NCBI RefSeq assembly: GCF_032854445.1
Contig: NC_088295.1
Coordinates: forward strand, 69,235,249 to 69,299,248
Source: Liolophura sinensis
Lineage: Eukaryota > Mollusca > Polyplacophora > Chitonida > Chitonidae
Direction: 5' to 3'
DNA: 64,000 nucleotides
Shown here: in pieces, positions 46,696 through 63,829 of the stretch
Layout of the letters: every line of letters begins with the position of its first letter
Numbering within the stretch: the first letter of the stretch is position 1
The notes under the pieces: generated by a model
Seen by the model: the letters and a program-made list of their open reading frames with translations, nothing else
Databases searched by the model: none
Told to the model about the DNA's origin: nothing
Translations under genes and position numbers: made by a program

Positions 46696-46784
46696 ATGGC
46701 TCCATTTCTCCAGTGCCTGACGTCCACGCTTATTTGCCTGATCCAGCTATGCATCAGCACCTCTGCCAGTCTCCAAAGTTACGG
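46696..46784 (+). other. Exon 1: signal peptide of the EMI/EGF protein
   Basis: [20 protein letters not shown] is a hydrophobic secretory leader, followed by STSASLQSY; cleavage is likely near SAS. Start context CCAAGATGG is favourable. Ends in phase 2 at GG|GTAAGG. Confidence 0.8.
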
Positions 46785-61700: not shown

Positions 61701-63829
61701 AGCACTGGTTCGTCTTGTATGGTTCTCTCAGTACTGGTTCGTCGTGTATGGTCTCCTCAGCACTAGTTCGTCGTGTATGGTCTCCTTATCACTGGTTCGT
61801 CGTGTATGGTCTCCTTATCACTGGTTCGTCGTGTATGGTCTCCTTATCACTGGTTCGTCGTGTATGATTCCCTCAGCACTGGCTCGTCGGTTGTGGTTTC
61901 TTTAGCACGTTCTTTAAGTGAAACTGGATACCAGATAGATTTGTGGAACATATGTGATGATCCAAAAATGTTTTGCTAGTATTTTCGGAAAAAAAGACTC
62001 AGCTGAACATAATGTCAGGTTAAATTAATATTAGCAAATTATTCTTTAGAGAATTTGTGTGCTCCAATAAATTCAAAGCATGCAAAAGCGTAACATGAGT
62101 TGGTCACTTTTTATAGCTATTTGCTTTGGGATGTATCCTGGTGAATGTCCTAACGGTGGAGAATGTGTGAACCCGGACATGTGCCGCTGTCCTGAAGGTT
62201 ACATCCCACCCAGATGTGAAGGTAAGAGGAGCGTATAAACTCGATCGTAATATTTTATTGCAACTTTTAAAACATTAACAATGTCTGATTCGACTGAAAA
62301 TGCTTCCCAAGTTTCCTAAAGCAATTCTTCTAAAAGGTTTCGTACATAAATCTGAAATAATCAAAAAGTTTTCATTATTCGTGGCCAAGTTGATCTAACT
62401 AGATTAGAAATAGATTTTCTGAGTACTTTTGTTCCTCGTCGTAGATACGAACGAGTGCTTGGTAGACAATGGAGGCTGTGAGAAAGAGTGTGTGAACACC
62501 AAAGGTTCATTTTACTGTTCCTGCTGGGAAGGCTATGGTATGAACCCCGCTGCAGATATTTGTGAACGTAAGTCAACTTTTGTTATAGGATAACAAGAAA
62601 GGTGATATAAACTCTGTCAAAAAAGAAACGCAACCCCTGTCCTCGGATATCAAAAAATCGTTCGAATAAAGTTATTGCTTCCAAACTAAATTTTAGCCGA
62701 ATGTAATGAAATTATACATGTTTTTAATGAAGATTACCATCCAAACAACTGCCTTTCCTCTCCTAAGTGTATTTTATTGCTCATGACGTCACAACGCATG
62801 GACTGACCCTGTTGACGTCGCACACAGAACCATTCACATGCAAATCATGTCAATGGCAGTTATAGTGTGGGGGTGTATAAAAGCCCATGTGCTTTCGTAT
62901 TTTATTCATTCATTCGTCGACGAAAGGCAGTCGGTAAAATGCCGCGACTGAGTGCTGCCGACCGAAATATCGCCATTGGTCGCCTTCAAGCCGGAAAAAG
63001 TTTTGGTACTATTGCACGACACCTAAATGTTCACAAAACAACGATATCCCGACTTTGGAGCCGTTACAACAACTTTAATTCGACCAACGATCGCCCGAGA
63101 AGTGGAAGGCCAAGAATCACGACCCCACTTCAAGATCGGTACATCCGGGTCCTTCACCTGCGTAATCGGCATGCCCTACCAACCGTGACTGCCACACAAA
63201 TATCAGGTTTGAGGAGAGTGTCGGCTCAAATGATTAGGAACCGTCTGAAAGAAGCGGGTTTACGTGCCTGTAGACCAGTTGTTGGACCTGTACTACGCCC
63301 CTTACATCGATGCCTACGACTTAGGTGGTGCAACAACGTAAGGATATGGACTTTACAAAACTGGAGGCGCATCTGGTTTTCTGATGAATCCCGTTTTCTT
63401 TTGACACGTCACGACGGAAGACAGCGTGTGTATAGGAGACGTCATGAACGCTTTGCGCCCATCTGCGTCCGGCAGGTGGACAGATTTGGCGGAGGCAGTG
63501 TTATGGTTTGGGGAGCCATCTCGTACAACCAGAAATCAGACTTGGTCACTCTGTCAAAACCCATTGTAAAAGAATATATTTATTCATATATATTTATTTA
63601 TTCACTACAACAACCGGATATTTTGAAGACATTAATATTGGAACAGGTTGTCTAAGAATTTAATTTACACCTAATCAGCATGATTTGTATGTCTTATTGG
63701 TGACACAATAACTTTGTATTCCAGCTATCTGTTTTCACTCGCAACCTGGGACTTGCAATGGCGGGGGGAAGTGTACAGCCCCTGACACATGCACTTGCAC
63801 GGATGGATATGGAGGAGATGAATGCAAAG
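46696..63829 (+). CDS. Secreted EMI-domain protein with alternating EGF and calcium-binding EGF modules, 5' part
   Basis: Twenty-five coding exons are visible, coding about 935 residues; the gene runs on past the right edge. Exon 1 (46696-46784) codes a signal peptide, exons 2-3 an EMI domain, and exons 4-25 one EGF module each. Ten modules are of a 35-residue type (AVCFGxxPGxCxNGGxC, then PDxCxC and GF) and twelve of the calcium type (DIDEC, then Asn/Asp and aromatic residues before CxC). Every module exon is phase 1 at both ends. The product should be an extracellular, calcium-stabilised filament or matrix/adhesion protein. EMI plus many EGFs recalls MEGF6-type proteins, but this alternation matches none I recognise, so no symbol is given. 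The right-hand truncation is only the window edge. Confidence 0.85.
47556..48184 (+). other. Exons 2-3: EMI domain
   Basis: Exons 47556-47657 and 48099-48184 join in phase 2 to code [16 protein letters not shown], a [14 protein letters not shown] stretch, and [13 protein letters not shown]. The cysteine spacing and the CCPGW motif are diagnostic of EMI domains, which usually sit just after the signal peptide and mediate oligomerisation. Exon 3 ends in phase 1, setting the phase of all later modules. Confidence 0.8.
48201..48400 (+). repeat. 30-bp tandem repeat in intron 3, open in frame with exon 3
   Basis: Six complete units start at 48201, 48231, 48261, 48291, 48321 and 48351 (AGACAAKAMAGCAACTAC pattern), with a partial seventh. 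Read through the exon 3 donor, it stays open for 80 codons with a decapeptide pattern such as [10 protein letters not shown] and stops at 48424-48426. Confidence 0.9.
48772..48960 (+). mobile_element. SINE family A in EMI/EGF intron 4
   Basis: Plus-strand copy, head diverged, tail GGCGTAAAACACCAATGAAA then AATAAATAAATAAA. Confidence 0.8.
49261..49695. mobile_element. TTAA-type MITE, truncated copy
   Basis: Left end AGGAGGAAATTTAAAT preceded by TTAA (49257-49260). The interior matches 45392-45958 apart from an internal deletion of about 80 bp; the right terminus is missing. It lies just before EGF exon 49774. Confidence 0.85.
50197..50470 (-). mobile_element. SINE family B, strongly diverged
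   Basis: Shares CTTGGAGTTTTTACGTCGAG, CTGTGTCTTCTGGTGGCAG and an ACTGACCCCGGGTCAAAC-like region with the copy at 13455-13762. Confidence 0.55.
51021..51108 (-). mobile_element. SINE family A tail fragment
   Basis: TTATTTATTTATTTTTACGT, GTACTCAGGAATATTTCTCA and the start of the body only. Confidence 0.65.
52505..56132 (+). other. Exons 9-14: three cbEGFs, one EGF, two cbEGFs
   Basis: Exons 52505-52630 ([13 protein letters not shown]), 53092-53214 ([12 protein letters not shown]), 54027-54149 ([12 protein letters not shown]), 54741-54845 ([17 protein letters not shown]), 55435-55551 ([11 protein letters not shown]) and 56010-56132 ([12 protein letters not shown]). All six cysteines are present in each. 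The strict alternation breaks here, as if two EGF-type exons had been lost or cbEGF exons duplicated. Confidence 0.88.
55109..55144 (+). repeat. G-rich tract with quadruplex potential
   Basis: Several runs of 3-8 G separated by one or two bases in intron 12 of the EMI/EGF gene, on the coding strand. Confidence 0.85.
56133..57194 (+). other. Intron 14 of the EMI/EGF gene
   Basis: 1,062 nt without a recognisable EGF exon or repeat on either strand. The minus-strand open frame 56394-56771 has no family features. Confidence 0.5.
58097..58206. repeat. (TA)n microsatellite, about 110 bp
   Basis: Uninterrupted TA run in intron 16, 63 bases before exon 17; open in both strands as Tyr-Ile repeats, which is an artefact. 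Confidence 0.98.
58585..58823 (-). mobile_element. SINE family A in intron 17
   Basis: Minus-strand copy lacking most of the tail, with body, GAGCTGGGCTTGAACCCAC and GGCCGAGGTGATTAGC head. Confidence 0.85.
59570..59806 (-). mobile_element. SINE family B, head-truncated, with 13-bp target duplication
   Basis: ATTCCAGGTTATG at 59557-59569 and 59807-59819 flanks a copy nearly identical to 19496-19860 over the tail and body but lacking the tRNA-like head. It starts 27 bases after the exon 19 donor. Probably a recent insertion. Confidence 0.92.
60363..60485 (+). other. Exon 20: cbEGF lacking the last two cysteines
   Basis: [15 protein letters not shown] is normal, but after YYC the module reads [17 protein letters not shown]: the fifth and sixth cysteines are absent. 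In EGF folds these two pair, so the third disulfide is lost as a unit. The frame and splice sites are intact, so this is not a pseudo-exon by sequence. Confidence 0.85.
60798..60902 (+). other. Exon 21: EGF module
   Basis: [17 protein letters not shown] and [16 protein letters not shown]: a complete six-cysteine module of 105 nt between the two cysteine-poor cbEGFs. Confidence 0.88.
61181..61309 (+). other. Exon 22: diverged cbEGF lacking the last two cysteines
   Basis: [18 protein letters not shown] replaces the usual DIDEC start, and after FYC the sequence [16 protein letters not shown] has no cysteine. It has the same missing pair as exon 20 and a weakened calcium motif. Open, phase 1-1, 129 nt. 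Confidence 0.8.
61601..61890. repeat. 29-bp minisatellite, ten copies
   Basis: Units begin GTATGGTCTCCTTAGCACTG or a close variant every 29 bases from 61601; three consecutive units (61775-61861) are identical. It lies in intron 22 of the EMI/EGF gene. Confidence 0.95.
62117..63829 (+). other. Exons 23-25: EGF, cbEGF, EGF
   Basis: Exons 62117-62221 ([17 protein letters not shown]), 62445-62567 ([12 protein letters not shown]) and 63725-63829 ([17 protein letters not shown]). All have six cysteines and end in phase 1. The last has a G|GTTAGA donor 171 bases from the window edge, so more exons follow outside. A truncated Tc1 element fills the intron before exon 25. Confidence 0.88.
62607..63560 (+). 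mobile_element. Tc1-type transposon, 3'-truncated, in EMI/EGF intron 24
   Basis: The left end ACTCTGTCAAAAAAGAAACG near 62611 looks like a terminal repeat. A transposase frame starts at 62939 ([20 protein letters not shown]) with a helix-turn-helix ([21 protein letters not shown]), the GRPR hook (RPRSGRPR), the first catalytic Asp in FSDESRF and [13 protein letters not shown]. Conservation stops at about 63555, before the second Asp and the Glu, so the enzyme cannot be active. The N-terminal 200 codons are open, which suggests a fairly recent arrival. Confidence 0.85.

What the first reader, a model, noticed from the sequence alone, without database searches (positions are those of the whole stretch)
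46696..63829. EMI protein built from two EGF types in near-alternation, one module per symmetric exon, EGF exons fixed at 105 nt
Nine of ten type-1 EGF exons are exactly 105 nt (the first is 108), while twelve cbEGF exons vary from 117 to 129 nt. All are phase 1-1, so any exon or pair can be skipped without breaking the frame. The order runs E-c-E-c-E, then ccc-E-cc, then E-c alternation again, suggesting tandem growth by a two-exon (EGF+cbEGF) unit followed by local loss or gain. I know no named family with this layout. It could be a lineage-specific matrix or recognition protein with cassette splicing.
Basis: partly seen in the sequence, partly recalled or inferred. Interest (0 to 1): 0.72.

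Follow-up and report, generated by a model that had tools for sequence, protein, structure and literature searches.

The report
Giant 64-EGF cell-surface receptor family
The exons seen in the window are the front end of a very large predicted membrane protein whose 64 EGF-type building blocks come in the same fixed order in a distant sister gene, part of a family of about twenty related loci in this animal.

Summary
The exon observation is confirmed: an EMI-like head, then 10 type-1 EGF (E) and 12 cbEGF (c) exons, all phase 1-1, nine of ten E exons 105 nt. The window stops mid-gene. In the assembly the array runs on to 28 E and 36 c modules, followed by large unmatched exons, two Ig domains and a hydrophobic segment. 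E exons are 105 nt in 22 of 28. A paralogue 25 Mb away (P8) has an EMI-like head and the same 64 modules in the same order. Eight c modules lack cysteines 5-6 in both genes at the same positions: a conserved four-cysteine subtype, not decay. The C-terminal exon matches 22 loci, ours included; 20 have E/c matches upstream on the same strand. Best reading: a giant type-I membrane receptor family with an old, fixed EGF rod. Cassette splicing has no support. Pairwise E+c growth fits the order but not module similarities. The adhesion or recognition role is inferred. No RNA and no animal protein database were available, so novelty in print is only partly tested.

The parts
46696..46784 (+). exon 1: start codon and signal peptide by eye (phase 0-2)
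47556..47657 (+). EMI-like exon 1 (phase 2-2), WxxC motif
   Evidence: P8 counterpart (26 of 63 aligned columns identical over both EMI exons)
48099..48184 (+). EMI-like exon 2 (phase 2-1), CCPGW motif; fibrillin-1 FUN-EGF1 like
48482..48589 (+). E1, type-1 EGF, 108 nt
49073..49192 (+). c1, cbEGF, 120 nt
49774..49878 (+). E2, 105 nt
50808..50927 (+). c2, 120 nt
51539..51643 (+). E3, 105 nt
52505..52630 (+). c3, 126 nt
53092..53214 (+). c4, 123 nt
54027..54149 (+). c5, 123 nt
54741..54845 (+). E4, 105 nt
55435..55551 (+). c6, 117 nt
56010..56132 (+). c7, 123 nt
57195..57299 (+). E5, 105 nt
57547..57669 (+). c8, 123 nt
58269..58373 (+). E6, 105 nt
58956..59081 (+). c9, 126 nt
59438..59542 (+). 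E7, 105 nt
60363..60485 (+). c10, four-Cys cbEGF (no C5, C6), 123 nt
   Evidence: four-Cys in P8 too
60798..60902 (+). E8, 105 nt
61181..61309 (+). c11, four-Cys cbEGF (no C5, C6), 129 nt; calcium motif lost here
   Evidence: four-Cys in P8 too
62117..62221 (+). E9, 105 nt
62445..62567 (+). c12, 123 nt
63725..63829 (+). E10, 105 nt, weak donor gttaga; not the last exon: c13 starts after 231 nt, outside the window

Best explanation
The exons are the N-terminal part (935 aa) of a giant, probably single-pass type-I membrane protein of roughly 4,400 aa (my estimate from exon coordinates): signal peptide, EMI-like head, 64 EGF modules (28 E, 36 c), two further EGF-like modules, two large unmatched regions (about 400 and about 900 aa, the second rich in cysteines shared by paralogues), two Ig domains, small exons of unknown type, a hydrophobic segment and a short tail. 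The EGF array acts as a long stiff spacer: joints entering a c module have the short linker of calcium-stiffened cbEGF pairs (recalled from fibrillin), joints from c to E carry the packing residues of known rod-like EGF pairs. It holds the EMI head about 150 nm from the membrane for adhesion or recognition. Shown: exon model, order, collinearity with one paralogue, a multi-locus family. Inferred from sequence: joining of the last exons, membrane topology, rod. By analogy only: adhesion/recognition role.
For: Array continues in phase past the window to continued position 88800. P8 paralogue: 64 of 64 module types in order; same-position identity E 0.432 vs 0.352, c 0.402 vs 0.319, reached by 0 of 100,000 permutations; EMI exons, first unmatched exon 143 of 422 identical, hydrophobic segment plus the stretch after it (tblastn E 0.003) and the exon before it (E 2e-4), all. 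Four-Cys c at the same 8 positions in both genes. Ig_3 in 10 of 10 aligned exons, ours and nine paralogues. 22 C-terminal loci, ours and P8 among them; 20 have E/c matches upstream on the same strand, 2 have none. Linkers: 5 aa at 12 of 12 entries into c, 3 aa at 7 of 9 c-to-E joints. Packing pair at 8 of 9 c-to-E joints, against Pro in 2 of 12 c modules (rule from PMC3794157, passages). EMI needed for cell adhesion by fly NimA (PMC13076899, passages).
Against: No transcript joins any exon. Joins from the large exons onwards rest on phase and weak splice scores. No signal or membrane predictor was run; the helix is by hydropathy and its likeness to P8 is weak (E 0.003). EMI is not recognised by Pfam for either gene. 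The EMI O-fucose motif seen here is absent in P8 by eye. NimA's EMI is not needed for its multimerisation, so EMI roles differ. Only P8 was read in full; the upstream test at other loci used 130-kb ranges in which neighbours share hits. Seven of 31 C-terminal matches hold stops, so some loci may be broken. c16 and E14 of our gene are degenerate calls.
Confidence: 0.66

Rival explanations
1. Two neighbouring genes: a secreted EMI-EGF matrix protein and a separate Ig-domain membrane protein downstream.
For: No RNA; the EGF part and the 1243-aa frame are joined only by phase and a weak acceptor.
Against: The same order recurs in P8 and E/c matches lie upstream of 20 of 22 C-terminal loci on the same strand, ours and P8 included; the first unmatched region shares one open frame with a Notch-like EGF.
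Confidence: 0.14
2. Lineage-specific matrix or recognition protein diversified by cassette exon skipping.
For: All module exons are symmetric phase 1-1, so skipping keeps frame.
Against: Module order is identical in a paralogue with about 40-43 percent same-position identity. Skipping a single E leaves an Asp/Asn ligand in only 9 of 27 cases. Symmetric phase-1 EGF exons are generic (recalled).
Confidence: 0.08
3. An expanded EGFL7/MEGF6-type secreted EMI-EGF-cbEGF protein.
For: EGFL7 is signal-EMI-EGF-cbEGF (PMC2901201, passages), the same start as EMI-E1-c1.
Against: 64 modules, Ig domains and a hydrophobic segment downstream; EMI not matched by Pfam.
Confidence: 0.07
4. The four-Cys c modules are decaying modules of no importance.
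For: c11 has also lost its calcium motif here; c16 and E14 of the same gene do look degenerate.
Against: Four-Cys state at the same 8 positions in both genes (1.7e-7 by chance for the 30 c first compared); a shared motif in 16 of 16 four-Cys versus 3 of 56 other c modules (the motif was written after seeing them).
Confidence: 0.03

Closest known systems
EGFL7 / EGFL8 (and MEGF6)
   Same: Signal peptide, EMI, non-calcium EGF, then calcium EGF at the N-terminus (EGFL7: PMC2901201, passages; MEGF6 order is recalled)
   Different: EGFL7 has two EGF domains and ends in a coiled coil; here 64 modules, large unmatched regions, two Ig domains and a hydrophobic segment
Fibrillin-1 N-terminus (FUN-EGF1-EGF3)
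   Same: Best PDB match to the head plus E1 (2m74, E 4e-5); the same interdomain packing residues; cbEGF rods
   Different: No TB or hybrid match in the window protein; alternating E and c; membrane anchor likely
MEGF10/PEAR1/Draper and NimA (EMI plus EGF membrane receptors)
   Same: EMI, EGF repeats, membrane anchor; EMI-dependent adhesion reported for NimA and PEAR1 (PMC13076899, passages)
   Different: Calcium EGFs, Ig domains and the large unmatched regions are not named for these families in the passages seen
NELL1/NELL2 EGF segment
   Same: Best PDB hit for the EGF stretch E1-c5 (6pog, E 3.9e-22), a mix of cbEGF and an E-like module
   Different: NELL architecture otherwise unrelated (recalled); one E-like module in the alignment shown, not 28

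Membership tests
EMI domain proteins | Match to the Pfam EMI profile (PF07546, number recalled) | tested here: not met
   Not listed at E<=10 for our head or the P8 head; HMMER filters may drop weak hits. A genome search with PF07546 was asked once and not answered
EMI domain proteins | N-terminal Cys-rich domain with WxxC and C-terminal CC-x-G-W | tested here: met
   Sequences, both genes; motif recalled
EMI domain proteins | O-fucose motif C1XXXX[S/T]X (PMC11949838, passages) | tested here: inconclusive
   By eye: present in ours, absent in P8 (sequences)
EGFL7/EGFL8 | EMI, two EGF domains (second calcium-binding), coiled-coil C-terminus | tested here: not met
   64 EGF modules, then other regions
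Fibrillin/LTBP | TB or hybrid (8-Cys) modules among cbEGFs | tested here: not met
   None listed in the Pfam scan of the 935-aa window protein; the downstream array was scanned with E and c profiles only
Calcium-binding EGF (EGF_CA) | Pfam EGF_CA match; [DN]x[DN][EQ]C and hydroxylation motif | tested here: met
   E 3.7e-51; N-terminal motif in 11 of 12, full hydroxylation motif in 10 of 12 window c modules
MEGF10/PEAR1/Nimrod | EMI plus NIM or EGF repeats and a membrane anchor | tested here: inconclusive
   Hydrophobic segment, but 36 of 64 modules are cbEGF-type; NIM repeats not tested, no tree made

The most novel reading that the evidence does not exclude
A previously undescribed family of about 20 giant type-I receptors, each with an EMI-like head, a fixed 64-module E/c rod with a conserved four-cysteine cbEGF subtype at set positions, a new large Cys-rich domain, two Ig domains and a short tail, serving cell-surface recognition in this (unidentified) animal.
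Probability: 0.5. Interest if true: 0.78.

Novelty: new variant of a known kind. Interest (0 to 1): 0.62.

Why it matters
A 64-module array kept unit for unit through a gene duplication, although every exon could be skipped or duplicated in frame, suggests that length and module position are under selection: a molecular ruler. The four-cysteine cbEGF gives a natural test of which EGF disulphide is dispensable. A family of about 20 diverged loci with a large unmatched domain would be a new recognition system to test.

Tried and rejected
E10 as last exon: its donor is gttaga, read-through meets a stop after one residue and ATTAAA follows at 63928; rejected when c13 was found 231 nt downstream.

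Link between C at donor position -1 and strong GTRAGT donors: p=0.007 in the window, gone in the whole array (7 of 17 vs 12 of 47, p=0.24).

c-to-E joints as flexible hinges: dropped, since 8 of 9 carry packing residues of rod-like pairs.

Pairwise unit duplication from trees: E and c trees have no starred branch; only E4+E7 reached 86/93; E3+E4 as sisters p-AU 0.013, lowest of the eight AU tests run. Growth simulations favour two-module steps only mildly. No similarity between introns: direct repeats shared between modules were exonic.

Structure of c10: mean pLDDT 59.6, not usable; the control c8 (alignment A2) was never accepted, so there is no comparison. One viral-contig search gave one unrelated-looking EGF protein. 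Rfam at gathering threshold: 0 matches in the window. NCBIfam (bacterial and archaeal models): 0 for the first 243 aa. Ten paper searches showed no paper naming this architecture in the titles and abstracts listed; two searches listed 10 of 778 and 10 of 22. Eight papers were seen as passages only.
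Full report
Observation. The exon set is real. A splice model over 46696-63829 has a signal-peptide exon, two EMI-like exons and 22 module exons, all module exons phase 1-1, giving 935 aa without a stop. Nine of ten E exons are 105 nt and E1 is 108; twelve c exons are 117-129 nt. Profiles built from these modules find these 10 E and 12 c in the window; other hits are at E 0.28 or worse. All 20 six-Cys patterns in the window lie in this gene, against 1 hit over 20 shuffles. 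Pfam gives EGF_CA at 3.7e-51. The EMI label rests on motifs: no Pfam EMI hit at E up to 10 for the head; the nearest solved structure is fibrillin-1 FUN-EGF1-3.

Module anatomy. E modules have fixed Cys spacing 7-5-5-1-8 in 9 of 10 in the window although non-Cys identity between E modules is 0.17-0.55, so uniform length looks like constraint rather than recent copying. All 12 entries into a c module have a 5-residue linker; 7 of 9 c-to-E joints have 3 residues and the other two follow c10 and c11, which lack C5 and C6. At 8 of 9 c-to-E joints both packing residues are present, an aromatic after C5 and a Pro between C3 and C4 of the next module (at c7 the aromatic is not preceded by Gly, and c10 and c11 have no C5-C6 pair). 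Fibrillin-1 EGF2-EGF3, HHIP, WIF-1 and Jagged-1 rods share them (PMC3794157, passages). That Pro is found in only 2 of 12 c modules. Ten of 12 window c modules have the full hydroxylation motif and 11 of 12 the N-terminal calcium motif.

Split codons. The phase-1 intron splits the joint residue itself. Over the 64 modules the codon entering c is Asp in 33 of 36, and the codon entering E (27 joints, EMI-E1 left out) is Pro in 17, Ala in 7, Gly in 2 and Ser in 1. The upstream exon ends in G before c in 36 of 36, and before E in C 17, G 9, A 1. So frame-neutral skipping is not chemistry-neutral: skipping one E leaves an Asp/Asn in 9 of 27 cases, an E+c pair keeps the joint residue class in 21 of 27, a single c in 31 of 35. 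Exon c35 was carried there with a probably too distant donor (171 nt); the nearer donor at 88422 gives 120 nt and the same last base.

Beyond the window. The genome search answered: the window is C1:69235249-69299248 of a 609-Mb assembly. The next 39.6 kb continues the array. In coordinates continued from the window it ends at 88800, with 28 E and 36 c in the order E c E c E ccc E cc, E c repeated, E ccc E cccc. E lengths: 105 in 22 of 28, 108 in 3, and one each of 102, 99, 111. c16 and E14 are degenerate calls. After an odd EGF near 89207, an exon from 89532 begins with a Notch-like EGF and runs on about 400 aa without a family match. A 1243-aa open frame follows, with two Ig domains near its end (Ig_3 7.8e-20), then small frames without a Pfam match and a frame with a hydrophobic segment and a short tail ending at 98718. 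Joins in this last part rest on phase and weak splice scores.

Family. The 877-aa piece of that frame matches 31 places in the same genome: itself and 30 others at 19-33 percent identity; 7 of the 31 hold stops. They merge into 22 loci, ours included. Ten of the 20 match records fetched were aligned (ours and nine paralogues): 16-22 percent identity to ours, 16 invariant Cys of which 12 lie before the Ig domains. Ig_3 is found in 10 of 10; nothing but Ig-type families reaches E 0.01, and in the 60 of 2,686 PDB matches shown the best stretch is the Ig part. Of 140 listed genome matches to EMI-E1-c1-E2-c2, 105 lie upstream of C-terminal loci on the same strand within 130 kb, 16 of them in this gene; 20 of 22 loci have at least one and two have none (C10:28974737, C3:13145653). 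Neighbouring loci share some of these matches, and the match lists are lower bounds. The other 35 matches are not explained by this family.

Collinearity. One paralogue, P8 (C1:94.31-94.44 Mb, minus), was read in full. It has EMI-like exons (26 of 63 aligned columns identical) and 64 modules in exactly our order, 64 of 64 types. Left out before that count: hits under 17 bits, partial exon copies shorter than 90 nt, one longer relic, and anything after the array. Same-position identity exceeds other positions (E 0.432 vs 0.352; c 0.402 vs 0.319; 0 of 100,000 permutations). Still, the best-scoring P8 module is the same-position one in only 9 of 28 E and 14 of 36 c, and in 54 modules compared the P8 counterpart beats the best other module of the same gene in 16, so single modules carry little signal. 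All eight four-Cys c modules (c10, c11, c14, c15, c17, c20, c26, c28) are four-Cys in P8, with no further Cys before the likely donor, and no other c is. A GYG..P-like motif replaces the C5-C6 part in 16 of 16 against 3 of 56 other c (motif chosen after inspection). The array is thus older than this gene duplication and its module types have not changed since.

Origin of the alternation. No two E modules are adjacent (P=4.4e-4 in the window), which fits growth by E+c units, but similarity matrices show no shared E/c history and trees are unresolved. The pairs may be too old to test. P8 shows that exon fragments do multiply in tandem: arrays of partial E and c exon copies sit beside their source exons.

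Mechanism. I take the array as a stiff spacer: calcium-type joints into c (recalled from fibrillin), packing-type joints into E. With 2.7 nm per cbEGF and 2.1 nm per other EGF (PMC3794157 figure legend) 64 modules give about 156 nm, if straight. Four-Cys modules may be weak points. The EMI head at the far end is the likely binding part: EMI is needed for adhesion by fly NimA, as reported for PEAR1, though not for NimA multimers (PMC13076899, passages). The tail shares a P.P..ST.DL.G-like stretch with P8, perhaps an adaptor site. This paragraph is inference.

Known relatives. EGFL7 shares the EMI-E-c start (PMC2901201, passages) but not the rest. Fibrillin shares cbEGF rods and packing, but no TB or hybrid domain was seen in the window protein. 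EMI-EGF receptors such as MEGF10, PEAR1 and NimA share EMI plus a membrane anchor. No held library covers animal proteomes, so absence of a named family is only shown for Pfam, the PDB sequences and the paper searches named. The animal was not identified.

Noticed in passing
62816-63655 +: Tc1-like transposase frame (Pfam HTH_Tnp_Tc3_2 2.5e-8) in the intron between c12 and E10.
   Followed up: partly
25163-25855 - and 18799-19089 -: Hormone-sensitive lipase gene: HSL_N 1.7e-41, and a weak Abhydrolase_3 match below its cut-off (7.1e-5); two further minus-strand frames tested gave no hit.
   Followed up: partly
36680-36991 +: DCAF8-like exon (PDB 9u7t, E 1.3e-14) between the lipase and the EGF gene; a frame at 27380-28441 that I took for its start by recall has no Pfam hit.
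   Followed up: partly
48200-48391 +: 30-nt tandem repeat in the intron after EMI exon 2; the frame stays open for 80 codons after the weakest donor of the gene. Other read-throughs of 79 and 66 codons occur, so this may be chance.
   Followed up: no
P8 paralogue, L027-L038 (C1:94317000-94436999): Minisatellites made of exon fragments: tandem partial copies of E exons at 91- and 95-nt spacing and of a c exon's acceptor end at 43-nt spacing, beside their source exons. Two c18 relics lie in our gene downstream of the window.
   Followed up: partly
61610-61908 and 58097-58206: 29-nt minisatellite and a perfect TA run in introns of the gene.
   Followed up: no
L003, continued coordinates 66954-67705: c16 and E14 look degenerate in our gene (5 and 7 Cys) but the P8 counterparts are intact.
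   Followed up: partly
L001 4566-6605: Contig held as viral (IMG/VR) encodes a 679-aa protein with an Asp/Thr-rich stretch and EGF-like repeats.
   Followed up: no
48822-48923 and 58600-58701: Dispersed repeat in two introns, opposite orientations, 76 percent complementary over 102 nt.
   Followed up: no
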